Below, piece by piece: positions 1-64,000 of a stretch of DNA of 64,000 nt. Every line of letters starts with the position of its first letter. Within the stretch, counting starts at the first letter, position 1. This stretch comes from Nostoc sp. JL34 (GTDB lineage: Bacteria > Cyanobacteriota > Cyanobacteriia > Cyanobacteriales > Nostocaceae), in the NCBI RefSeq assembly GCF_017114945.1, contig NZ_JABXKQ010000124.1:30383-94382 (forward strand), in the 5' to 3' direction. The position numbers and the translations under genes were made by a program. The notes under the pieces are model-generated. The model was given only the letters and a program-made list of their open reading frames with translations. It was not told the DNA's origin and did not search any database.

Positions 1-1800
1 CAATTTGGGCAATGCTTACAATTATCAGGGAAAGTACCAACAAGCGATTGAGTTCTATCAGCAGTCTTTGGATATATTTAGGGACATAGGCGATCGCAAT
101 GGTGAAGGTAATTCCTTAAACAATTTGGGCAGTGCTTACAATTATCAGGGACAGTACCAACGAGCGATTGAGTTCTTCCAGCAGTCTTTGAAAATCAAAA
201 GGGACATAGGCGATTGTAATGGCGAAGGTAGTTCCTTAAACAATTTGGGCAATGCTTACAATTATCAGGGAAAGTACCAACAAGCGATTGAGTTCTATCA
301 GCAGTCTTTGGATATATTTAGGGACATAGGCGATCGCAATGGTGAAGGTAATTCCTTAAACAATTTGGGCAGTGCTTACAATTATCAGGGACAGTACCAA
401 CGAGCGATTGAGTTCTTCCAGCAGTCTTTGAAAATCAAAAGGGAGATTGGCGATCGCAATGGTGAAGGTAGTTCCTTAAACAATTTGGGCAGTGCTTACC
501 GTTCCCTGGGACAGTACCAACAAGCGATTGAGTTCTTCCAGCAGTCTTTGAAAATATATAGGGACATAGGCGATCGCAAAACAGAAGGCTTATCTTTAGC
601 TAATTTGGGTAATGCTTACTTATGTCTGGGGCAGTACCAACAGGCGATAGATTTCTACCAGCAGTCTTTGGACATTGCTAGGGAAATCGGCGATCGCAAA
701 ACAGAAGGCTTATCTTTAGCTAATTTGGGTAATGCTTACTTCTCTCAGGGGCAGTACCAACAGGCGATAGATTTCTACCAGCAGTCTTTGGATATAGCTA
801 CGGAAATCGGCGATCGCAAAACAGAAAGCTTATCCTTAATGAATTTGGGTGTTGCTGACTTATCTCTAGGGCATTACCAACAAGCGATAGATTTCCACCA
901 GCAGTCTTTGGATATAGCTACAGAAATCAGCGATCGCAAAACAGAAGGCTTATCTTTAGCTAATTTGGGTAATGCTTACTTCTCTCAGGGGCAGTACCAA
1001 CAGGCGATAGATTTCTACCAGCAGTCTTTGGATATAGCTACGGAAATCGGCGATCGCAAAACAGAAAGCTTATCCTTAATGAATTTGGGTGTTGCTGACT
1101 TATCTCTAGGGCATTACCAACAAGCGATAGATTTCCACCAGCAGTCTTTGGATATAGCTACAGAAATCAGCGATCGCAAAACAGAAGGCTTATCTTTAGC
1201 TAATTTGGGTAATGCTTACTTCTCTCAGGGGCAGTACCAACAGGCGATAGATTTCTTGCAGCAGTCTTTGGATATAGCTAGGGAAATCGGCGATCGCTTT
1301 GGCGAAGGTAATTCCTTAATCAGTTTGGGTAATGCTTACTTCTCTCAGGGGCAGTACCAACAGGCGATTGAGTTCTTGCAACAGTCTTTGGATATAGCTA
1401 GGGAAATCGGCGCTCGCAATTCTGAAGGCAAATCCTTAATGAATTTGGGTATTGCTTACGGTTCTCAGGGGCAGTACCAACAGGCGATTGAGTTCTTGCA
1501 GCAGTCTTTGGAGATAGCTAGGGAAATAGGCGATCGCGATTCTGAAGGCAAATCCTTAGGTAATTTGGGTAATGCTTACAACTCTCAGGGGCAGTACCAA
1601 CAGGCGATAGCTTTGTTTGAGCAGTCTTTGGAGATAGCTAGGGAAATAGGCGATCGCAATTCTGAAGGCGCATCCTTAGGTAATTTGGGTAATGCTTACA
1701 ACTCTCAGGGGCAGTACCAACGGGCGATAGAGTTCTTGCAGCAGTCTTTGGATATAGCTAGGGAAATAGGCGATCGCAATGGCGAAGCGATCACATGGTT
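1..1800 (+). repeat. Tandem array of fifteen 120-bp units (TPR codons), with recent 240-bp duplications
   Basis: The DNA repeats every 120 bp without length variation. Bases 721-960 and 961-1200 are identical, and 1-204 matches 241-444 exactly before a few differences. In 13 of 15 units the codons Gly-Asp-Arg (or Ser-Asp-Arg) are written as a HIP1 octamer at the same unit position. Units 2 (near 211) and 12 (near 1411) have lost it by point change. The pattern indicates recent expansion by unequal recombination in two-unit steps. Confidence 0.95.
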
Positions 1801-44401: not shown

Positions 44402-47320
44402 TTAAACAACCACAAAATTGTTGTTCGTGAGTGACAACCCAGGAGATAATCCTGCAAATTGTACCTGAGTAAATGCGCCTGCACTACCATCTAGGTCAAA
44501 GAACAATGCACCTGTAGTGGAGTTATAAATAAATCGCTGGGTGCTAGTGGTTGCAGATTCTCCAAGTGTAAACTGACTTGTCTTAAGTACACCTGCTGAT
44601 AAACCGCCACTAAAACTCGCAGTCCCCACCTGAATTAGTTCATTAGTGGCATCGAAGTCACGTATCAGATTAAGACCTTCATTGAAGAAAGTATCGAAAA
44701 CAAAGGTATCAGTACCACCTTCCCCATAGAGACTATCATTACCATAGCCACCTATGAGGGTATCATCACCATTGCCACCTTTCAGGGTATTATTATTTGA
44801 GGCAGAAGAGGCTATCAGGAAGTCATTACCATCGCCCCCATTTAATAGATTATTGCCTGTAAAAGTGCCAATATTCAATGTATCGTTACCAACACCACCG
44901 TTGAGGATGTTCTCACCAGAGGTGTTAGTAGCAGAGAGGAAATCATTACCATCACCCCCATCTAATAGATTATCGTCTGCTGAACCGTAAACATTCAATG
45001 TATCGTTACCAGCACCACCGTTGAGGGTGTTATCGCCAGATACGCCATTTTCAACAAAATTTCCGTATTCGTCGTAAATGTAACTCAAGACCTGTAAAGA
45101 ATCATTGCCATTGCCTCCATTGAGGAGGTGATCCCCTGTTGAAAGACTAATATCCAAGAAGTCTTCACCAGCGCCGCCATCTATTGTATCGTTACCATTG
45201 CCTGAGCGGAGCGTATCATTACCATTGCTTCCCACAAGATAATCATCGTAGTCTGTACCTATGATATTTAATTGTTCGATATTCTTGTAGTTAAACACTT
45301 TTGTGTCCGCCGTCGTAGAAATTATTGCAATGTTAGTAGTAGGATTGAAAGTCGAAGTAATTCCCGTAGTAGCACTGCTATAACTGAAAGACAAGGTGTC
45401 GTTACCTGTTCCCCCGTCTACTGTTTGAGTCACTAACGTAGATAGGGAGTAGAAATTTAAAGAATCATCGCCATTCCCTCCATTGAGGGTGTTATTGCCA
45501 GTGCCACCATTGAGAGTATCATTGCCATCGCCACCGTTGAGAATATTATTGCCATCGCCACCCCTCAAAATGTCATTGCCACTTAAGCCTTCAATAATGT
45601 CATCACCCCCTTGACCATTGATCACATCATTTGAATTGTCAAATCCAGTAACATTGTTGGATAGGTCGTTTAGGAAGGTGACTGTGTTTTTTTTAAAGAC
45701 AGTGCTTTGGGTGGAGTTAGCATCAAAGACATCAAAGCTGTCGGTGAGGGTAGTTTGCCCATAAAACAGAATATTGCCCAAATCTACGGTAGCTCCAGTA
45801 GATTTGGTGAGGTTTTCCAGGTTTTCCAGGGCAAAGTTTTCCAGGATAAATCTGGTATTATCATACCCTTGAAAGCTGATTTCCAAACTTGTGCCATTCT
45901 GGGTGAGAAGCAAATTGTCGGCAGTGAAGGCACGAGAGTCCTGGAATATCAGAGTATCCACTTCGGCTATGACTGCTGCTGTGGGGTTTGTTCCTTTACC
46001 TACTCCAGTAAAATCGGCGATCGTATGAGTGCCAGTATTAATCCTGTCGTTGCTTAAGCCTTTGTAAACAAATTTATCCTTACCACCGCCGCCCGTGAGG
46101 CTATCCTTACCATCGCCGCCTGTAAGGCTATCATCGCCATTACCACCGTTGAGGGTATTATTACCAGTGGCACCAGAGGCTGTTAGAGTATCATTGCCAT
46201 CGCCCCCAGAGAGGAGGTTATTGCCAGATGAGCGAGAGTCGTAGCCGGAGTCATAATATTGGTAAAGAAAACCAGAGATGGAGAGAAAATCATTGCCATC
46301 ACCTCCAAAAAGCAGGTTATCGCCTGATGAACCACTAGCATTTAAAGTATCATTACCAGCATCACCGTTGAGGGTGTTATCGCCATCTGAGCGAGAGTTG
46401 GACGATGTGTACTGCTCACTGCTTACACTCCCAGAGATGGAGAGAGAATCATTGCCATCGCCCCCATCTAAGAGGTTATCGCCGAATGAACCACTAGCAT
46501 TTAAAGTATCATCACCAGCACCACCGTTGAGCGTATTATTGCCGAAAGAGCGATCATCGACTTCTCCGTAGTAGGCGTTGTACTCGTCGCTGCCAGAGGC
46601 TGTCAGAGAATCATTGCCATCGCCACCATTAAGCAGATTATTGCCTGAGGGGGAGTCAGCATCCAAAAAGTCGTCACCAACACCACCGTTAAGGGTATTA
46701 TTGCCCGCACCACCCTTCAAAATGTCATTGCCACTTAAGCCTTCAATAATGTCATTACCCCCTTGACCATTGATCACATCATTTGAATTGTCAAATCCAC
46801 TAACATTGTTGGATAGGTCGTTTAGGAAAGTGACTGTGTTTTTTTTAAAGACAGTGCTTTGAGTGGAGTTAGCATTGAAGACATCAAAGCTGTCGGTGAT
46901 GGTAGTTTGCCCATAAAACAGAATATTGCCTAAATCTACAGTGGCTCCAGTGGATTTGGTGAGGTTTTCCAGGTTTTCCAGGGCAAAGTTTTCCAAGATG
47001 ATTGTGCGAAAAATAAACCCTTGAAAGTTGATTTCCAGATTATTGCCATTCTGGGTGAGGATCAAGTTTTGGGCAGTGAAGTCATTATTGTTCTGGAAAT
47101 TTAGGGTGTCCACTTCAGCAATGACTGCTGCTGTGGGGTTTTTTCCTTCACCTACCCCACCGAAATCAGTGATTACGCTGGTATAGGAACCTACATCATT
47201 CCTGTAAACAAATATATCCTTGTCACCGCCACCAGTTACGGTGGTTATGGTGTCGAAAAAATCCTGCTCGGAAAATCCCTGTAGGGTATCGTTACCGTTG
47301 GTTCCAATGATAATTGCCAT
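44402..47320 (-). CDS. RTX-type calcium-binding repeat protein, probable type I secretion substrate
   Basis: 972 residues made largely of GGxGNDxLxG nonapeptides that form calcium beta-rolls, flanked by two related modules of about 150 residues (near 35-195 and about 425-585). Each module has DxFVY, NPTAAVIAEVDTL, ENFALENLENLTKSTGATVDLGNILFYG and VFKKNTVTFLNDLSNNV. The C-terminus (LIRDFDATNELIQVG and FIYNSTTGALFFDLDGSAG) is the usual uncleaved type I secretion signal region. No enzymatic domain is seen, so a structural or adhesive surface role is likely. The secretion apparatus is not in the window. Confidence 0.87.
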   Translation of the reverse strand: MAIIIGTNGNDTLQGFSEQDFFDTITTVTGGGDKDIFVYRNDVGSYTSVITDFGGVGEGKNPTAAVIAEVDTLNFQNNNDFTAQNLILTQNGNNLEINFQGFIFRTIILENFALENLENLTKSTGATVDLGNILFYGQTTITDSFDVFNANSTQSTVFKKNTVTFLNDLSNNVSGFDNSNDVINGQGGNDIIEGLSGNDILKGGAGNNTLNGGVGDDFLDADSPSGNNLLNGGDGNDSLTASGSDEYNAYYGEVDDRSFGNNTLNGGAGDDTLNASGSFGDNLLDGGDGNDSLSISGSVSSEQYTSSNSRSDGDNTLNGDAGNDTLNASGSSGDNLLFGGDGNDFLSISGFLYQYYDSGYDSRSSGNNLLSGGDGNDTLTASGATGNNTLNGGNGDDSLTGGDGKDSLTGGGGKDKFVYKGLSNDRINTGTHTIADFTGVGKGTNPTAAVIAEVDTLIFQDSRAFTADNLLLTQNGTSLEISFQGYDNTRFILENFALENLENLTKSTGATVDLGNILFYGQTTLTDSFDVFDANSTQSTVFKKNTVTFLNDLSNNVTGFDNSNDVINGQGGDDIIEGLSGNDILRGGDGNNILNGGDGNDTLNGGTGNNTLNGGNGDDSLNFYSLSTLVTQTVDGGTGNDTLSFSYSSATTGITSTFNPTTNIAIISTTADTKVFNYKNIEQLNIIGTDYDDYLVGSNGNDTLRSGNGNDTIDGGAGEDFLDISLSTGDHLLNGGNGNDSLQVLSYIYDEYGNFVENGVSGDNTLNGGAGNDTLNVYGSADDNLLDGGDGNDFLSATNTSGENILNGGVGNDTLNIGTFTGNNLLNGGDGNDFLIASSASNNNTLKGGNGDDTLIGGYGNDSLYGEGGTDTFVFDTFFNEGLNLIRDFDATNELIQVGTASFSGGLSAGVLKTSQFTLGESATTSTQRFIYNSTTGALFFDLDGSAGAFTQVQFAGLSPGLSLTNNNFVVV

Positions 47321-48199: not shown

Positions 48200-48685
48200 T
48201 TAGTCTACATAATCCGTTGGTATTTGCGAATCAACAGTGTTATTTGAAACTATTGGGCGGCTACCATCTATCTCTAGAGTATCCTGAACTGGAAAATTAC
48301 TCTTAGCGATCGGACGTTGACCGTCTATATCAAGAATTTCCTCAACCTCTAAATCACTAGGATCAATTGGACGTTTACTCTCTACAGTTAGCATGTCATT
48401 TTCTGGAAAAGCGCTCTTAGCAATTGGGCGTTGACCATCTATATTAATTGTTTTATCAGAATGATTTGCATCCTTCACAATTGGGCGTTGACCATCTACA
48501 TTAATTGTTTCCTTAATTTGAATGTTACTCGGATCAACTGGGCGTTGACCATCTATATTAATTGTTTTGTTTATCTGTCTCAGTTCGTTAGATGATGAAG
48601 ACATATCAGTTTCGGTCTCTACTGTCTGCTGCTCAGAATTATTTTTTTTACTATCAGCTTTGTTCGGGTTATCCATGTTTTTCAT
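48200..48685 (-). CDS. Protein of six exact 19-residue IDGQRPI repeats, unknown function
   Basis: 161 residues. The first 40 are hydrophilic (Lys, Asn, Ser, Gln, Glu) and look disordered, with no signal peptide. Residues 41-154 are six units of exactly 19 residues, each of the pattern hydrophobic-x-hydrophobic-(D/E)-(G/S)-(Q/K/S)-R-P-(I/V). The first is TINIDGQRPVDPSNIQIKE, the fourth is the most divergent (LTVESKRPIDPSD). Arg-Pro is invariant. The tail IPTDYVD ends the protein. No cysteine. The even period suggests a solenoid or a linear array of short motifs. The gene stands alone between the RTX gene and the RND operon. I recall similar RPI-repeat proteins in other cyanobacteria but cannot verify this. 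Function unknown. Confidence 0.8.
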   Translation of the reverse strand: MKNMDNPNKADSKKNNSEQQTVETETDMSSSSNELRQINKTINIDGQRPVDPSNIQIKETINVDGQRPIVKDANHSDKTINIDGQRPIAKSAFPENDMLTVESKRPIDPSDLEVEEILDIDGQRPIAKSNFPVQDTLEIDGSRPIVSNNTVDSQIPTDYVD

Positions 48686-49034
48686 TGTTTTTCTAAGATT
48701 ATTTATCTGCTAACAACATGACCTTAAGAGTTATTTTTCTGTAAGAAAAAGAAACTGGGGATTAGATAAAGATCGGAAAAATTATGATTGATCTAATAAT
48801 TTGTTCATTTAGTACGATACTGAAGTAGAATCAAAAAATCTTCTACCACAGCACAGAATGCATCTATGACTTGAGAGGGATTTGTCGTTTCTCAAGAAAC
48901 ACATAAATTTTCAGCCGTTTTTGAAAAGAAGCGGCTAAAAAGTTGGGAATAAAGTTATTTAAATGATGGCAAGTACCTTGTAACGACAAGCGCAACGGAA
49001 GAGTACCTTATATCATGTTCGGGTAAAGACTTAT

Positions 49035-49335: not shown

Positions 49336-52300
49336 CTAAGTTTTGAAGAAAAAGCGGTAAAACTTAGGTTGGCCAAGCTTTTTCCGCCATGTCTCCATGT
49401 AAATATAAAATACTGGAGTCAGATAGAGAGTCAATATTTGAGAGAACAGCAATCCCCCAACGATCGCAATCCCCAGAGGACGACGCGCTTCTGAACCTAC
49501 TCCTGTCCCCAGAGCAATGGGGAGTGTGCCAATTAAAGCTGCCATCGTCGTCATCATAATTGGACGGAAACGAGTCAAGCAAGCGGCATAGATGGCATCA
49601 AAGGAATTTTTTCCTTCCTTTCGCTGCGCTTCAATGGCAAAATCTACCAGCATAATGCCATTTTTCTTGACGATACCCACTAGCAGGATTATGCCGATGA
49701 AAGAGTAAAGATTTAAATCAACCTGGAAAATCAGCAGCGTCAATAATGCGCCAAAACCCGCCGAAGGTAGACCAGAAAGAATGGTGATTGGGTGAATGAA
49801 ATCCTCATAGAGGATACCGAGAATTAGATAGATGACTAAAATAGACACCAACAACAGCACGCCTAAATCGTTGAAGGACTGCTGAAAAGTTTGGGCTGAA
49901 CCCTGAAAGCTGGGGGTAATTGTTGAGGGTAGCACCTCACTGGCTGCTTGCTTGATGGCATCGGTAGCCTGACTTAGAGATGTTCCTGGGAGTGTGTCGA
50001 AAGAGATAGTTGCAGAGGGGAGTTGAGCAACGTGAGTCACAGTCAGGGGGCCGACATTTTGGGTAATATTAGCGATCGCACTCAAAGGAACCAGTTTTCC
50101 AGTACTCGATTGCACATATAGCATCGATAAGGCGCTGGGATCTCGCTGAAATTCTGGTTTCACTTCTAAGATTACATAGAATTGGTCATTTGGGGTATAG
50201 ATAGTTGACACTTGACTGGAACCATAAGCCGCGCTAAGGGTTTGTTCAACTTGTTGGGCAGTAATCCCCAGGGTTGCGGCTTTGTTGTGGTTAAATTGGA
50301 CTTGGATTTGGGGAGTGCTGAGTTGTAAATCGCTGTCAACGTCCCGCAGTCCTGGTAAAGTTTTGACTTTATCTACAAGTTTAGGAACGTATTGGCGCAA
50401 GTCTTGCAGATTTAAACTCTGCAACGTGAACTGATAAGTAGAATTGGTTTGTTGTCCACCGATGGGAATAGCTGGCGGAGAACGGAGGAATGTCTTAACC
50501 CCAACTACACGTCTCAGCTTGGGGGTTAACTCTTGAATGATTTGGTCAGCACTGAGTTGACGTTGAGAACGTGGCTTGAGCCGAATCGTAATTCGCCCAG
50601 AGTTGACTGATGCATTAGGGCCACTTGCACCCACAATCGAGTCAACTGCTTCAATGTTGGGGTCTTTACGAATGATGTCAACTACCTTTTGTTGGTGAAG
50701 CCGCATATCATCAAAAGAAATATCTTGCGCTCCTTTGGTGTTCGCCATCAGTTGTCCGGTGTCTTCTGTAGGAATAAATCCTTTGGGAACGATGACGAAC
50801 AGATAGACGGTCATTACCAGCAGAATGCCAGAACCAATAAGCGTCATCAGGCGGTATTTTAAAATCGGCTTGAGCGTCCAATCATATCCCCGCAGTAGTA
50901 AATCAAATCCCCCTTCTAAGACTCGATACAGCAGATTTGGTCTTTGCTGATGGGATGAACTTAAGAAACGACTACACAACATGGGAGTGAGACTGAGGGA
51001 AACAAAACCCGAAACCAAAATTGCCACAGCGATCGTCACGGCAAATTCATGAAATAATTTACCGATTATTCCGCTCATAAACATGATCGGGATGAACACT
51101 GCCACCAGGGAAAGGGTCATCGACAAAATGGTGAAGCTGATTTCCTTTGATCCCTTCAATGCCGCATCTAGGGGAGATTCGCCCATTTCCCGATAACGGA
51201 CGATATTTTCCAACACCACGATCGCATCATCCACGACAAAGCCCACGGAGAGGGTCAACGCCATGAGTGAAAGGTTGTCTAGGGAGAAGCCCGATAGATA
51301 CATCACCGCAAAAGTGCCAATGATCGCTACAGGTAGCGCCAAACTGGGAATTAGCGTCGCCGTGATATCACGTAAAAATAAGAAAATCACCAAGATAACT
51401 AGACAAACCGAGAGAACCAAGGTAAATTTCACATCATTGACAGAGGCTCGGATGGTTTGGGAGCGATCGTACATAATCCCCATCTCAATCGATTTGGGAA
51501 CTTGTTCGCGGAGTGTAGGTAAAAGTTCCTGGATGGCATCAACAATATTTACAGTATTAGCACCCGGTTGCGGCTGTACAGCGAGAACAACGGAATGGCG
51601 GTTTGTCACCTTGCGATCACTATACAAATTTGAGACTTTGACGTTTTGTTCGCTGTCAATTACTTGCCCCAAATCCTGAAGCCGCACGGGCGCACCATTT
51701 TTGTAAGTTACAATCAGCTGGCGATAACTGGCAGCATCGGTGAGTTGACCGTTAGCCTGAATCGTATAGGTTTTGTAAGTGTTAGAAAGACTACCTGTTG
51801 GTAAGTTGACATTTCCCTGTTGAATTGCAGTTTTTACCTGACTTAGACCAATTCCCCGCGATGCCAACTCTCGCGGGTCAAGCTGGACGCGGACTGCATA
51901 TTGCTGTTGACCAAAAACCTGTACCTGAGCAACACCATTAATCATCGAGATGGGCTGACCAACCGTTACCTCTGCGTATTCATCTACTGTCGAGATTGGC
52001 TGTGTCTCAGAATACATATAGAGGAAGAGAATCGGTGAGACAGATGGGTTGACTTTGCGGTAGGTGGGCGGATGAGGCATTCCGGCGGGCAGTTGTCCGG
52101 CTGCGGCTGAAATGGCTGCCTGTACATCTTTGGCGGCATCTTCCACTCTGCGGCTAAAGTCAAATTGTAGGGAGATGTTGGTGCTGCCAGTTGAACTGGT
52201 GGAATTGAATGAATTGAGTCCGGCAATTTCGGTAAACTGTCTTTCTAGGGGTGCGGCGACCGAAGATGACATTGTTTCTGGGGTGGCACCAGGGAGACTA

Positions 52301-52446
52301 GCAGAGACAGAAATAAAAGGATATTCAACGTTAGGCAGCGCACTGATGGGTAACAATAGATAACTCATGAGACCGAAGATAAGGATACCCATCATTACCA
52401 AAGTGGTCATGACCGGACGACGAATGAAGAGTTCTGAAAGGTTCAT
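49336..52446 (-). CDS. RND-family efflux pump (HAE-1/MdtC-like), second pump of the operon
   Basis: 1036 residues, the size of AcrB/MdtB proteins, with 12 membrane segments and two large periplasmic loops. The N-terminus (NLSELFIRRPVMTTLVMMGI) is typical. The proton-relay Asp pair is in LSVGFVVDDAIVVLENIVR, and GIVKKNGIMLVDFAIEAQR and SGLPSAGFGALLTL mark the second half. About two-thirds of positions look the same as in the other RND gene, so the pair probably arose by duplication. A GGGAG sequence about 10 bp from the ATG is the likely ribosome site. Works with the membrane-fusion protein and an outer-membrane channel encoded elsewhere. Substrate unknown. Confidence 0.93.
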   Translation of the reverse strand: MNLSELFIRRPVMTTLVMMGILIFGLMSYLLLPISALPNVEYPFISVSASLPGATPETMSSSVAAPLERQFTEIAGLNSFNSTSSTGSTNISLQFDFSRRVEDAAKDVQAAISAAAGQLPAGMPHPPTYRKVNPSVSPILFLYMYSETQPISTVDEYAEVTVGQPISMINGVAQVQVFGQQQYAVRVQLDPRELASRGIGLSQVKTAIQQGNVNLPTGSLSNTYKTYTIQANGQLTDAASYRQLIVTYKNGAPVRLQDLGQVIDSEQNVKVSNLYSDRKVTNRHSVVLAVQPQPGANTVNIVDAIQELLPTLREQVPKSIEMGIMYDRSQTIRASVNDVKFTLVLSVCLVILVIFLFLRDITATLIPSLALPVAIIGTFAVMYLSGFSLDNLSLMALTLSVGFVVDDAIVVLENIVRYREMGESPLDAALKGSKEISFTILSMTLSLVAVFIPIMFMSGIIGKLFHEFAVTIAVAILVSGFVSLSLTPMLCSRFLSSSHQQRPNLLYRVLEGGFDLLLRGYDWTLKPILKYRLMTLIGSGILLVMTVYLFVIVPKGFIPTEDTGQLMANTKGAQDISFDDMRLHQQKVVDIIRKDPNIEAVDSIVGASGPNASVNSGRITIRLKPRSQRQLSADQIIQELTPKLRRVVGVKTFLRSPPAIPIGGQQTNSTYQFTLQSLNLQDLRQYVPKLVDKVKTLPGLRDVDSDLQLSTPQIQVQFNHNKAATLGITAQQVEQTLSAAYGSSQVSTIYTPNDQFYVILEVKPEFQRDPSALSMLYVQSSTGKLVPLSAIANITQNVGPLTVTHVAQLPSATISFDTLPGTSLSQATDAIKQAASEVLPSTITPSFQGSAQTFQQSFNDLGVLLLVSILVIYLILGILYEDFIHPITILSGLPSAGFGALLTLLIFQVDLNLYSFIGIILLVGIVKKNGIMLVDFAIEAQRKEGKNSFDAIYAACLTRFRPIMMTTMAALIGTLPIALGTGVGSEARRPLGIAIVGGLLFSQILTLYLTPVFYIYMETWRKKLGQPKFYRFFFKT

Positions 52447-52537: not shown

Positions 52538-53518
52538 CTATCTTTGATTTTTAAACATCTCTAATGCCTCCTTAACTGCTTCTTGAACAACTGGATCTGG
52601 ATCTTCTAAAAGCTGCGAGACAAACTCCACAGCCTCAAATGCTTTGATTTTTCCTAAAGCAAATGCTGCTCTACTACGAACCCATTTGCTAGGGTGTTGG
52701 AGTCCTTGAATTAATGCATCTACTGCTCGAAGTTCTTCGAGTACTATTACTACAGAAAAACCTGAATCATGTTTTTCATCTTGCAGTAGATTCAGAAGAG
52801 TATTAACTACTTTAGTTTTCAGGTTATTTTGTGGAATTTCTATTGCATAGCTATTAATCATAGATAGGTCTTCATGAAGTAGTTGTACGGTTTGCCAAGA
52901 GGAATCTTCAGGAAATATTTTCAGAAATCTTTCGAGAGCTAAGTCTGTAATTCCTAAGTTGTAATTTCGATATACAGCAGCATACTTTTTCTCATCTTTC
53001 TCTATGTAACCGTTACGACCAATGAACAATCCCCCAGTCTCGTAAGATTCCGCTAGAGTCAACATCATAGCTGTTAAATTGGTGTATTGCAGTGAAATTT
53101 CAGCAATTTCGGAAATATGAATTACAGGAGAAGTTGTTTGTTCATCATCAGTTGCAACAACTGCTAAAAACTCCATATCCGATATACAGATTGGCAAGAC
53201 AGGTTTACCTGCATACTTATACATCAGGTTTATTTCTTCATGTTCCTCTACCCAAGTTTGAGCTTCTTTCACTGCTGACTCTAAATTTAAAAGGAACATA
53301 TAATAAAATATCCAATCATCTGCACATTCATATTTGGAATATCCATTTGACCATTGATAAATTTCCTTAACTTCGTTGGATACTTTAAAAGATAAAATAC
53401 TCAACAAATTATCTATTTCCAATGGACTTAAACCTGATGCCAAGGATGAAATCTTTGCTGGATATTTGTTTGTAAACCAGTAATGAATTCGGGTTAATGC
53501 ATCTTGAAGATCCGACAT
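52538..53518 (-). CDS. SUKH (SMI1/KNR4)-HEAT repeat protein
   Basis: 326 residues. The N-terminal half (about 1-190) matches the SMI1/KNR4 pattern: LSPLEIDNLLSILSFKVSNEVKEIYQWSNGY, then FLLNLESAVKEAQTWVEEH and LPICISDMEFLAVVA, near FIGRNGYIEKD. The C-terminal part (about 265-325) has HEAT/PBS-type repeats: LIQGLQHPSKWVRSRAAFALGKIKAFEAVEFV, then LLEDPDPVVQEAVKEALEMF. SUKH domains often serve as immunity or regulatory modules. The gene sits between the two RND genes on the same strand (91 and 66 bp gaps), an unusual place. No toxin gene is adjacent. Function uncertain. Confidence 0.8.
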   Translation of the reverse strand: MSDLQDALTRIHYWFTNKYPAKISSLASGLSPLEIDNLLSILSFKVSNEVKEIYQWSNGYSKYECADDWIFYYMFLLNLESAVKEAQTWVEEHEEINLMYKYAGKPVLPICISDMEFLAVVATDDEQTTSPVIHISEIAEISLQYTNLTAMMLTLAESYETGGLFIGRNGYIEKDEKKYAAVYRNYNLGITDLALERFLKIFPEDSSWQTVQLLHEDLSMINSYAIEIPQNNLKTKVVNTLLNLLQDEKHDSGFSVVIVLEELRAVDALIQGLQHPSKWVRSRAAFALGKIKAFEAVEFVSQLLEDPDPVVQEAVKEALEMFKNQR

Positions 53519-53584: not shown

Positions 53585-56500
53585 TTACGATCGCCCGCCT
53601 GTAAATGAAAATACCCGCCGGAACTTCACTTGATTGAGCTTGTTCCGCCATGATTCCATGTAGATATAGAACACAGGAGTTAAATACAGGGTCAATATCT
53701 GAGAAAACACCAGTCCGCCCACAACTGCAATACCTAGAGGACGCCGGGATTCGGAGCCAGCCCCAAATCCGATCGCAATAGGCAAGGTTCCCATTAATGC
53801 TGCCATCGTCGTCATCATAATTGGACGAAAGCGCACCAAGCAGGCTTGATAAATCGCCTCAGACGGTTTTTTCAATTCTTCTCGCTGGGCAACAATTGCA
53901 AAATCCACCATCATGATGCCGTTTTTCTTGACGATGCCCACCAAGAGAATTATGCCGATGAAGGAGTAAACATTAAGTTCGACATGGAATATTATCAGCG
54001 TTAACAATGCTCCAAAACCTGCTGAAGGCAAACCGGAAAGAATGGTAATTGGGTGAATGAAATCCTCATAAAGAACGCCAAGAATCAAATAAATTACTAA
54101 GATGGCGATCGCTAACAATAAACCCAAACTCGGCAGTGAACTTTGAAATACCTGACTTGCGCCCTGAAAACTGGTGCTAATGCTGGCAGGAATCACCTGA
54201 TTAATCAGTTTTTCAATCTCTTCGTTGGCATTTCCCAAGGACACACCGGGAGCGAGGTTAAAGGAAATAGTGGCGGCGTTCATCCGACCGTTATGATTGA
54301 CCATTAACGGGCTGACTCCCTGAGATAGTTTGGCGAATGTCTTCAGAGGGACTGCCACTCCTGTGCTGGAGTTAATGTACAATGTCAACAAAGCATTGAT
54401 ATCTTCCTGATATTGCGGTGCTAATTCCAAAATCACCTGATACTCATTGGTCGCTGCATAGATGGTTGACACTTGGTAGGAACCGTAGGCACTTCTCAGG
54501 GTATTTTCGATTTGCTCGGCGGTAATCCCATAAGTTGAGGCTTTATCGCGGTCAATGTCAATTTGGATCTGGGAAGCAAACTGTAAATCGCTGTTGACAT
54601 CCTGGAGTTCTGTCATCTCCTTCATCTTGACAACAAGTTGAGGAACATACTCCTGTAAGGGTTTGACATCAGAACTCTGGAGTGCAACTTGATAAAGTCC
54701 TGTGCTTTGTTGAGCGCCAATAGGTATCGCTGGGGGATTTTGTAAGAATACTTGAATGCCTGGAACAGTGGCGAGTTTGGTTCGCAAATTTTGCACGATT
54801 TCGTCAGCTCCAAGTTGGCGTTGCGATCGCGGTTTTAACCGAATAAACAAACTACCAGAATTGGCTGCAACTGCTGCCCCACCGCCACTAGCACTAGCTC
54901 CTGCCCCAATATTGGAGTTGACTGCATCCACATTTGGATCTTGGCGAATTAGGTTAGCAACTGTCTGCTGATGCTGGACAAGATTATCGAAGGATGCATC
55001 CTCTGCAGCTTGGGTAATACCTGTAATTTGTCCGGTATCTTCACTAGGAATAAAGCCTTTGGGAACTATCACTAAAAGCCCAACTGTCACCGCCAATAGA
55101 AAAACAGATAAAATCATCGTGGTGCGATGATATTTTAAGACTTTTTTCAGACTCCAATCGTACAAACCAAGGAAGCGATCGAAGACATATTCGGAAGCTT
55201 GATATAACCGACTTTGATTAGCATGATTTACAGGACGCAGAAAACGGCTGCACAACATGGGAGTCAGAGTCAAAGACACAAAACCAGAGACGAGAATTGC
55301 CACTGCGATCGTCACAGCAAATTCATGAAATAATCGTCCCAGAACTTCACTCATGAACAACATGGGGATGAAAACTGCAACCAAAGAAAGGGTCATCGAC
55401 AGAATTGTGAAACCAATTTCTCTCGATCCATTCAACGCCGCTTCTAAGGGACGTTCCCCCATTTCGATATGACGGACGATATTTTCTAGCATGACGATCG
55501 CATCATCCACGACGAAACCCACCGAAAGGGTCAACGCCATCAGCGATAGGTTATCTAGTGAGTAGTGCAGCAAATACATCACCGCAAAAGTGCCAATCAG
55601 CGAAACGGGTAACGCCAAGCTGGGAATCACCGTGGCTGAGAGGTTCCGCAAAAAGATGAAAATTACTAAGATAACTAGAGCGATCGTCAGAATCAACGTA
55701 AATCTGACATCATCCACCGAATCTCGAATTGACTGAGATGCATCATAGAGAATCCCAATTTCCACGGATGCCGGAATCTGGTCTCGCAAATTCGGAAGCA
55801 ATTTCTTAATTGTGTCTACAACTTGTACCGTATTGGTTCCGGGTTGTCTTTGAATAGTGAGAATAATGGCGCGAGTATTGTTGTACCAGCTTGCTACCTT
55901 GTCATTTTCTACACTGTCAACAATCCGACCTAGTTGATTGAGATAGATGGGCATTCCATCTTTATAAGACACAATCAGCTGGCGATAAGCAGCTGCATCC
56001 TGGAGTTGACCGTTAGTTTGGACTGTAAAATTCTTGTGATTTCCCGAAAGACTGCCAGTGGGCAAATCGACGTTACCCTGTTGAATCGCCGTTGCCACCT
56101 GATCTAGCCCAATTTGCCGCGTTGCCAATTGCTGTGGATCGAGTTGAATTCGAGCCGCATATTTTTGGGAACCGTAGACAGCTACCTGTGCTACCCCATT
56201 GATTGTAGATAGCTTTTGCGCTAGATAAGTCTCGGCATAATTGTCTACTTGGGAAAGGGGCAGTGTGGGAGAATCCAGGTAAAGGTAAAGAATTGGTTGA
56301 TCAGCGGGGTTAACTTTGCTGTATGTCGGAGGATTAGGTAAATCCGTCGCAATTTGCCCCGATGCTCCCGATATTGCTGCTTGCACATCCTGCGCCGCAT
56401 CATCAATGTTCCGACTCAGGTTAAATTGCAGGGTAATTTGAGTTTGTCCCAGAGTGCTAGTTGAGTTGAGCGAATCGAGTCCCGCAATACTAGAAAATTG

Positions 56501-56707
56501 CTTCTCTAGGGGACGCGCAACCGATGCTGCCATCGTTTCCGGGCTGGCTCCCGGTCGGGAAGCACTTACCTGAATTGTCGGATAATCCACACTTGGTAAA
56601 TCGCTGATGGGCAGCAAGCGATAACTCATGAAACCGAAGATCAAAATCGCCGTCATCACCAAAGTCGTCATGATCGGGCGGCGAATAAATGGTTCTGAAA
56701 GGTTCAT
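53585..56707 (-). CDS. RND-family efflux pump (HAE-1/MdtB-like), first pump of the operon
   Basis: 1040 residues. The features match the second pump: NLSEPFIRRPIMTTLVMTAI at the start, the LSVGFVVDDAIVMLENIVRH proton-relay motif, and GIVKKNGIMMVDFAIVAQREE in the C-terminal half. The ATG overlaps the stop of the membrane-fusion gene (ATGA) and has GGAGGTGATTC just before it, so translation is coupled. Likely expels toxic compounds (detergents, drugs, bile-like molecules) with the fusion protein; whether it pairs with the second pump as a heterotrimer, as in MdtBC, is inference from the gene arrangement. Confidence 0.94.
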   Translation of the reverse strand: MNLSEPFIRRPIMTTLVMTAILIFGFMSYRLLPISDLPSVDYPTIQVSASRPGASPETMAASVARPLEKQFSSIAGLDSLNSTSTLGQTQITLQFNLSRNIDDAAQDVQAAISGASGQIATDLPNPPTYSKVNPADQPILYLYLDSPTLPLSQVDNYAETYLAQKLSTINGVAQVAVYGSQKYAARIQLDPQQLATRQIGLDQVATAIQQGNVDLPTGSLSGNHKNFTVQTNGQLQDAAAYRQLIVSYKDGMPIYLNQLGRIVDSVENDKVASWYNNTRAIILTIQRQPGTNTVQVVDTIKKLLPNLRDQIPASVEIGILYDASQSIRDSVDDVRFTLILTIALVILVIFIFLRNLSATVIPSLALPVSLIGTFAVMYLLHYSLDNLSLMALTLSVGFVVDDAIVMLENIVRHIEMGERPLEAALNGSREIGFTILSMTLSLVAVFIPMLFMSEVLGRLFHEFAVTIAVAILVSGFVSLTLTPMLCSRFLRPVNHANQSRLYQASEYVFDRFLGLYDWSLKKVLKYHRTTMILSVFLLAVTVGLLVIVPKGFIPSEDTGQITGITQAAEDASFDNLVQHQQTVANLIRQDPNVDAVNSNIGAGASASGGGAAVAANSGSLFIRLKPRSQRQLGADEIVQNLRTKLATVPGIQVFLQNPPAIPIGAQQSTGLYQVALQSSDVKPLQEYVPQLVVKMKEMTELQDVNSDLQFASQIQIDIDRDKASTYGITAEQIENTLRSAYGSYQVSTIYAATNEYQVILELAPQYQEDINALLTLYINSSTGVAVPLKTFAKLSQGVSPLMVNHNGRMNAATISFNLAPGVSLGNANEEIEKLINQVIPASISTSFQGASQVFQSSLPSLGLLLAIAILVIYLILGVLYEDFIHPITILSGLPSAGFGALLTLIIFHVELNVYSFIGIILLVGIVKKNGIMMVDFAIVAQREELKKPSEAIYQACLVRFRPIMMTTMAALMGTLPIAIGFGAGSESRRPLGIAVVGGLVFSQILTLYLTPVFYIYMESWRNKLNQVKFRRVFSFTGGRS

Positions 56708-63904: not shown

Positions 63905-64000
63905 CATGTCCGCCTAATTAGTTATAATTCCCGCATCTGTGCAAAAACCAGGAAACTCTCTTTCCCCCTGCTCCCCTGCTCCCCTGCTCCCCTGCTCCCC
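63905..64000 (-). repeat. Dispersed repeat (copy 2) ending in 8-bp tandem units
   Basis: Its reverse complement matches 49035-49130. At the right end, 63969-64000 is four perfect copies of the octamer TGCTCCCC, a short tandem repeat running into the window edge. Confidence 0.65.

What the first reader, a model, noticed from the sequence alone, without database searches (positions are those of the whole stretch)
48200..48685. Protein of six exact 19-residue repeats with invariant Arg-Pro
The sequence shows a 161-residue protein whose residues 41-154 are six units of exactly 19 residues without any insertion or loss, each with a hydrophobic-D-G-Q-R-P-I motif, preceded by a 40-residue hydrophilic leader. 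No known domain fits. An even period with conserved turn residues may form a small solenoid. Alternatively a leader plus several similar short cores is also the layout of multi-core peptide precursors, but no maturation enzyme is nearby. Inference: either an uncharacterised cyanobacterial repeat fold or a peptide precursor-like protein.
Basis: partly seen in the sequence, partly recalled or inferred. Interest (0 to 1): 0.72.

Follow-up and report, generated by a model that had tools for sequence, protein, structure and literature searches.

The report
Undescribed cyanobacterial 19-residue repeat protein
The gene makes a small repeat protein that belongs to an unnamed family found in most sampled relatives of its host and in more distant cyanobacteria; it matters because such a widespread, evenly built protein has no known structure or job.

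Summary
The minus-strand ORF 48200-48685 encodes 161 residues (probably 158, from Met4) with six 19-residue units, each with Arg-Pro. It is a real gene: 22 related Nostocales loci, almost no indels inside the units, median dN/dS 0.26, and its own conserved promoter-like element. It is an accessory, sometimes plasmid-borne paralogue. Its genome also carries a 'core' copy; core-type genes match in 137 of 145 Nostocaceae genomes at E <= 1e-22, and family members in 102 of 105 sampled genomes of the order. The core gene lies head-to-head with uvrB within 800 bp in 42 of 80 loci. Pfam, NCBIfam, PHROGs and PDB gave no convincing match. A multi-core peptide precursor is unlikely: leader variable, repeats conserved. 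Even spacing, and indels confined to one loop (60 of 65; control mean 17.7), suggest an elongated array of small structural units showing evenly spaced Arg-Pro docking sites. AlphaFold2 on a shallow alignment gave no fold, so a disordered multivalent protein remains the main rival. Partner unknown.

The parts
48200..48685 (-). CDS of the accessory-type RPI-repeat protein, 161 aa (likely 158 aa from Met4, first base 48676)
   Evidence: ORF; 22 related loci; purifying selection; start conservation
48569..48685 (-). Leader, residues 1-39: hydrophilic, the variable part of the protein
   Evidence: 47% mean pairwise identity with many gaps; disordered side of the charge-hydropathy line
48512..48568 (-). 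Repeat unit 1 (residues 40-58) KTINIDGQRPVDPSNIQIK
   Evidence: 84% mean pairwise identity at this position over 22 aligned sequences
48455..48511 (-). Repeat unit 2 (residues 59-77) ETINVDGQRPIVKDANHSD
   Evidence: 69%
48398..48454 (-). Repeat unit 3 (residues 78-96) KTINIDGQRPIAKSAFPEN
   Evidence: 80%
48341..48397 (-). Repeat unit 4 (residues 97-115) DMLTVESKRPIDPSDLEVE; the family consensus has VDG where the window has VES
   Evidence: 80%; consensus
48284..48340 (-). Repeat unit 5 (residues 116-134) EILDIDGQRPIAKSNFPVQ
   Evidence: 87%
48227..48283 (-). Repeat unit 6 (residues 135-153) DTLEIDGSRPIVSNNTVDS; 7 of the 21 other aligned sequences lack one residue here
   Evidence: 81%
48203..48226 (-). 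C-terminal tail (residues 154-161) QIPTDYVD
   Evidence: 74% identity; Tyr159 invariant and Asp161 nearly invariant in 22 sequences; the core type ends mostly in L[MI]G[YF][LI]D instead
48842..48882 (-). Promoter-like element AATCCCTCTCAAGTCATAGAT-N11-TGTGGTAGA, ending 157 bases before the annotated start codon
   Evidence: Only match of the two-part pattern in the whole genome. First half with at most 3 mismatches in 29 of 43 upstream stretches, fewer than any shuffled stretch reached. The pattern was drawn; among 14 stretches not used for it and not apparent duplicates, 8 have at most 3 mismatches. Function inferred, not shown

Best explanation
The window gene is an accessory paralogue of a cyanobacterial family of repeat proteins that are probably intracellular. 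Shown by sequence: a variable hydrophilic leader, units of about 19 residues each with Arg-Pro-[Ile/Val], and a short conserved C-terminal tail. Inferred mechanism: each unit forms the same small, probably beta-type element (two short stretches of alternating hydrophobic residues, then a loop and a G-x-R-P turn), so that the array shows Arg-Pro sites at even intervals, and the protein works as a rigid or semi-rigid scaffold or ruler that holds several copies of a partner (or one long, regular partner), with the leader as a flexible spacer and the tail as an end dock. The accessory copy, carried with its own promoter-like element, would supply a variant of the core scaffold. Family membership and anatomy are well supported; fold and docking role are inferred; the partner is unknown.
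For: Spacing: 218 of 293 spacings between successive R-P-x motifs are exactly 19 and 37 are 20 in 77 family proteins fetched from across the phylum, stray motifs included. Unit profile from 218 units of 19: G1 in 83%, hydrophobic at 10 (98%), 12 (98%), 16 (88%) and 18 (75%), mostly polar at 8, 9, 11, 14, 15 and 17; R3, P4 and largely position 5 are fixed by how units were picked. In the 65 units of length 16, 17, 18 or 20 the best single indel position is 16-20 in 60; indels put at random places into 19-residue units gave 17.7 on average and at most 27 in 200 trials. In the 22 aligned accessory sequences the only indel in the units is one residue in unit 6, in 7 of them; each unit's best match outside its own sequence is the same position in 132 of 132. 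Median dN/dS 0.255 over 105 pairs of 15 sequences. Core type in 137 of 145 Nostocaceae at E <= 1e-22. No N-terminal hydrophobic signal is visible in the window sequence.
Against: Two AlphaFold2 runs gave no fold: mean pLDDT 46.5 and 46.5, pTM 0.10 and 0.11, although on 22 close sequences only. The window protein falls on the disordered side of the charge-hydropathy line in leader and repeats alike, as do both parts of the accessory-like L137; the repeats of the six core-type proteins computed fall on the ordered side. Spacing is looser in distant lineages: 16, 17 or 18 in 28 of 293, and 22-26 in 4. No binding partner was identified.
Confidence: 0.45

Rival explanations
1. Intrinsically disordered multivalent protein: the R-P-[IV] motifs are short linear motifs on a flexible chain that bind several copies of one partner, without a fold of its own.
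For: AlphaFold2 without fold twice; hydrophilic, acidic composition of the window protein; leader variable in length.
Against: Flexible linkers would be expected to vary in length; here 255 of 293 spacings are 19 or 20, odd-length units change at one loop in 60 of 65 against 17.7 expected, and positions 10, 12, 16 and 18 between the motifs stay hydrophobic. Repeats of the six core-type proteins computed fall on the ordered side.
Confidence: 0.33
2. The core protein is a partner or accessory of nucleotide excision repair, and the window copy a spare: the conserved head-to-head arrangement with uvrB reflects a shared function in DNA repair or its control.
For: uvrB lies upstream in the opposite direction within 800 bp in 42 of 80 fetched loci (41 of 77, plus L124), in 12 of 27 families by the labels (my count), one of them (f20) outside the host's order. 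Among the 20 distant loci L078-L097 uvrB is in the stretch in 10, the next most frequent neighbour cluster in 3.
Against: Not within 800 bp in 38 of 80 loci (4 of these have it further out; e.g. L080, L081, L083, L093, L097 have none in the stretch); LexA-box pattern in only 1 of 41 intergenic stretches (0.05 expected); no uvrB was seen near the window gene, and no uvrB-like cluster is shared by many accessory loci; divergent neighbours may share no more than a promoter region.
Confidence: 0.12
3. Multi-core peptide precursor: the leader guides a maturation enzyme and the units are cut out as several products.
Against: Leader 47% and repeats 80% identical, the reverse of the usual pattern of conserved leader and variable cores (recalled knowledge); no neighbour cluster shared by more than 5 of 23 loci; short forms (L012, L016-L020) lack most of the leader; one near-universal core gene in the family Nostocaceae.
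Confidence: 0.03

Closest known systems
DUF881 (Pfam PF05949)
   Same: 15 of 22 accessory-type sequences match weakly (best E 2.6e-5; window protein 9.2e-5, residues 12-67), a stretch that holds I-N-I-D-G-Q-R.
   Different: The window match is below the curated cut-off (22.8 against 25 bits), covers part of the leader and about one and a half units, and DUF881 is not among the matches at E up to 0.1 of the 20 core-type proteins.
AIDA-I type autotransporter repeats (NCBIfam NF033176)
   Same: A 19-residue period (recalled for AIDA-I), and weak matches: window E 0.0063; 2 of 20 core proteins, best E 0.00067.
   Different: 14 bits for the window protein against a cut-off of 1200; no visible signal peptide or barrel domain; the core proteins fetched are 101-239 aa.
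Right-handed beta-helix proteins with 19-residue coils (e.g. filamentous haemagglutinin repeats; recalled, not tested)
   Same: Repeat length and alternation of hydrophobic residues.
   Different: No sequence match in PDB at E up to 1 for the core profile; no fold predicted for the window protein; the known cases are secreted (recalled), here no signal is visible.
Multi-core RiPP precursors (recalled layout)
   Same: Leader plus repeated units.
   Different: Conservation pattern reversed, and no widely shared neighbour that could be the enzyme.

Membership tests
Cyanobacterial RPI-repeat family (described here) | Several tandem units with R-P-[IV] at about 19-residue spacing | tested here: met
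   Six units, spacing 19; the profile A3 of 20 core proteins finds the window gene at E 4.0e-15
Core type of that family | C-terminal L[MI]G[YF][LI]D-like tail after the last unit | tested here: not met
   Window protein ends PTDYVD. It belongs to a separate accessory group: the accessory sequences used form one clade without core sequences on a midpoint-rooted tree (103 sequences, support 0.83)
Core type of that family | Divergent uvrB neighbour (holds in 42 of 80 loci, so not strictly defining) | tested here: not met
   The next large ORF upstream of the window gene is a 1036-aa transporter-like protein; the link holds for the core copy of the same genome, L098, gap 201
DUF881 | Match above the curated Pfam cut-off | tested here: not met
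   22.8 bits against 25
AIDA-I autotransporter repeats | Match above the curated cut-off | tested here: not met
   14 bits against 1200
Multi-core RiPP precursor | Conserved leader, variable cores | tested here: not met
   47% against 80% identity
Multi-core RiPP precursor | Maturation enzyme encoded nearby | tested here: inconclusive
   No cluster other than the gene itself is shared by more than 5 of 23 loci, but several contigs are short and the neighbour clusters were not all annotated by function
Beta-solenoid | Solenoid fold | tested here: inconclusive
   AlphaFold2 pLDDT 46.5, pTM 0.10-0.11 on 22 close sequences; unit profile compatible

The most novel reading that the evidence does not exclude
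A cyanobacterial ruler protein: an old scaffold, near-universal in this order, whose 19-residue units form a new short repeat fold and place Arg-Pro docking sites at fixed steps along a regular partner, linked through its gene neighbourhood to uvrB, with plasmids spreading a re-tuned copy under its own promoter.
Probability: 0.12. Interest if true: 0.8.

Novelty: new variant of a known kind. Interest (0 to 1): 0.5.

Why it matters
A family with members in 102 of 105 sampled genomes of the order that holds Nostoc, and in 22 genomes of other orders of the class, gave no convincing match in Pfam or NCBIfam (20 core and 22 accessory sequences for Pfam; 20 core and the window protein for NCBIfam) and none in PDB for the core profile. 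It has a very even repeat and a conserved divergent neighbour, uvrB, so there is a simple way in: delete the core gene, look at UV survival, and pull down the partner. If a fold is found it may be a new short repeat.

Tried and rejected
Structure: two AlphaFold2 jobs, whole protein and repeats only, both without fold; no fold search was run because a low-confidence model gives meaningless matches. The core type was not folded: its loci came from the genome search and the fetch from genomes, which the folding tool does not name as allowed; none was submitted.

Peptide precursor: rejected on the conservation pattern. Phage origin: no match to the core protein in phages, none in PHROGs for 20 core proteins; in viral contigs three pattern matches, none a relative.

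Control of the uvrB/core region: LexA-box pattern in 1 of 41 stretches (0.05 expected). NtcA pattern in 2 of 41 against 2.5 expected, RbcR motif in 0 of 41 against 0.5 expected, so these scans say little. The LexA and NtcA patterns are recalled; the RbcR motif stands in a passage of PMC13249358 that I saw, but I had typed it from memory first.

Synechocystis slr0476: I guessed from locus numbers (memory) that this might be the core gene of PCC 6803, because uvrB is sll0459 there (PMC5101192, passages). I could not verify it: I recognised no genome of that strain among the 9 of one family searched. slr0476 is listed in an RbcR-regulon table (PMC12014562, a passage and one section) and in other tables (PMC4057619, PMC3516471, PMC3479031, passages). 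The lead is unproven and is not used as evidence.

Literature: searches for the repeat, its strings, and the uvrB neighbour showed me no paper on this family in the held library (open-licence PMC only; I saw listings, capped at 12-15 rows, and no hits for 37 and 41). Figure S1 of PMC5101192 shows gene order around cyanobacterial repair genes and may draw the neighbour as 'hypothetical' (legend seen; figure not held).

Rows dropped or special: of 80 fetched core-query loci, my ORF caller missed L124, L125 and L136, so one search counts 77; one search recovered all three by frame (L124 has uvrB close by, L125 and L136 none in the stretch; L125 is accessory-like). L137, counted among the 77, is accessory-like too. 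L138 and L143 were left out of the tree, and only every third A2 sequence went in. Loci were chosen by me from the matches, not at random. Five of the 43 upstream stretches look like duplicates of others (L160, L164, L167, L168, L169).

Full report
WHAT IS THERE. The minus strand of 48200-48685 encodes 161 residues. Residues 40-153 are six units of 19 with no indel; identity at shift 19 is 0.282, and the best shift in 1000 shuffled versions never exceeded 0.198. Arg-Pro is in all six; the longer motif with D-G-Q-R-P-I is exact in three. Met4 is the likely start, because it is kept in 12 of 13 long forms while Met1 is not. Some relatives (L012, L016-L020) have a shorter form that starts near window residue 28.

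IT IS A GENE. One scan of named genomes found 22 loci, all in Nostocales by their titles, 61-82% identical in the best segment. In the repeat block (15 sequences, 105 pairs) median dN/dS is 0.255. The units do not homogenise: every unit's best match outside its own sequence is the same position (132 of 132), with identity 0.80 for the same position in different proteins against 0.43 for different positions in one protein. L013 holds a doubled version with two six-unit modules.

IT TRAVELS ALONE. In 23 loci (window and L001-L022, some of them short) no neighbour cluster is shared by more than five. Eight plasmid records carry the gene, from Nostoc, Calothrix and Aulosira. Upstream lies an element that is the only match of its pattern in the genome (a looser search of the first half with two mismatches found one more place). 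The first half is present with at most three mismatches in 29 of 43 upstream stretches, below the lowest value (4) reached in shuffles; the pattern was drawn from 22 of these stretches, five of the 43 look like duplicates, and two had under 110 bases. Among 14 stretches that are neither, 8 have at most three mismatches. In 145 Nostocaceae genomes, 80 match the accessory profile at E <= 1e-15, but that includes core genes; from the listed places I count 49 genomes with a match at E <= 1e-29.

THE WIDER FAMILY. The window's own genome holds a second gene, 36% identical over 76 residues, with five R-P motifs at 19-residue spacing and the tail LMGFLD. With this core protein as query, 141 of 145 Nostocaceae genomes match at E <= 1e-4 and 137 at E <= 1e-22; the four weak ones may be accessory copies. 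With a profile of 20 core proteins (A3), 124 of 386 genomes of the phylum match at E <= 0.001. By the table, 102 are in the host's order, where three genomes without a match are listed, giving 102 of 105; this assumes that misses are listed by kinship, as they appear to be, and it counts core and accessory-like members together, among them G273 with stop codons inside. Another 22 lie in other orders of the class. The listed genomes of family f25 have none; 242 of the 262 misses are not listed. Outside cyanobacteria I searched only phages, plasmids and viral contigs, and the scan of named genomes used the accessory protein, so 'cyanobacteria only' is not shown.

ANATOMY OF THE UNIT. From 77 family proteins, 218 of 293 spacings are 19, 37 are 20, 28 are 16-18; ten others include stray motifs in leaders. 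The unit reads G-x-R-P-[IV]-x-A-S-x-L-x-[VI]-x-E-T-[YIFL]-x-[ILV]-x. In the 65 units of other length (16-20) the best place for the indel is position 16-20 in 60; random indels gave a mean of 17.7 and a maximum of 27 in 200 trials. This is what one expects from a repeated structural element with one tolerant loop. That it is beta-type is inference from the alternation of hydrophobic residues at 10/12 and 16/18.

STRUCTURE PREDICTION SPEAKS AGAINST, OR IS SILENT. Two AlphaFold2 runs with 22 close sequences gave pLDDT 46.5 and pTM 0.10-0.11. Shallow alignments of repeats often fail (recalled experience), so this is weak evidence, but it is the only direct structural test here and it did not support the solenoid. 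By charge and hydropathy the window repeats are on the disordered side, and so are those of accessory-like L137; those of the six core proteins computed are on the ordered side.

THE uvrB NEIGHBOUR. Of 80 fetched loci, 77 had a called ORF; 45 of 77 have uvrB in the stretch, in each case upstream and in the opposite direction, and 41 of 77 within 800 bp. L124, missed at first, has it too, so 42 of 80. By the labels these fall in 12 of 27 families, including f20 outside the order (my count). In the 20 distant loci L078-L097, uvrB is present in 10 and the next neighbour cluster in 3. The LexA pattern is in 1 of 41 intergenic stretches (0.05 expected). So the link is old, but its meaning is open: shared promoter region, or shared function. 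In 38 of 80 it is not within 800 bp; in L093 and L097 a gene resembling menD (my reading of the sequence) precedes the core gene.

KNOWN FAMILIES. Pfam: only DUF881 recurs, in 15 of 22 accessory sequences; the window match is below the cut-off, and DUF881 is not among the matches of the 20 core proteins. NCBIfam: weak AIDA-I matches. PHROGs: none for 20 core proteins. PDB: none for the core profile, two weak ones (E 0.11) for the accessory profile.

MECHANISM. I commit to an evenly spaced docking array (0.45), with a disordered multivalent binder as the main rival (0.33), a repair link by gene neighbourhood at 0.12 and a peptide precursor at 0.03. The deciding tests are a deep-alignment fold of the core protein, CD/NMR, and a pull-down.

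VERDICT. The finding is real and opens onto a large family that the libraries searched here do not describe. Its function is not known. Interest 0.5.

Noticed in passing
window 1-1780: About 15 copies of a 120-bp unit; the length of 40 codons suggests a TPR-type repeat protein cut by the window's edge.
   Followed up: no
window 44402-47320 (-): 972-aa protein with many GG-x-G-x-D-type repeats, like calcium-binding RTX proteins, downstream of the finding.
   Followed up: no
window 49336-52446 and 53585-56707 (-): Two proteins of 1036 and 1040 aa of one cluster that look like RND efflux transporters, with a 326-aa ORF between them (52538-53518).
   Followed up: no
window 63965-64000: An 8-bp unit CCCCTGCT repeated 4.5 times without mismatch at the window's edge.
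   Followed up: no
L013 9470-10411; L015 9950-10777: Double-length accessory genes: two leader-plus-six-unit modules in one frame (L015 is cut by the contig end in its second module).
   Followed up: partly
L137 4712-5314; L125 5042-5653: Accessory-like proteins (acidic D-G motif, tails TDYID and TDDYVD) from two other families of the order, f3 and f10, L125 with more units, so the accessory-like type reaches beyond Nostocaceae.
   Followed up: no
L098, L099, L102, L105, L109, L111, L157, between uvrB and the core gene: The string TTAATTATTGTAA recurs in these seven of 41 intergenic stretches; a possible regulator site in Nostocaceae.
   Followed up: no
L076 3500-4888 (plasmid NZ_CP040288.1): A short relative of the core type lies between two ArsR/SmtB-type regulator genes on a plasmid of Nostoc sp. 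C057.
   Followed up: no
L143 4772-5272: A distant family member whose motifs are spaced 17, 17, 17, 17: a different but equally even period.
   Followed up: no
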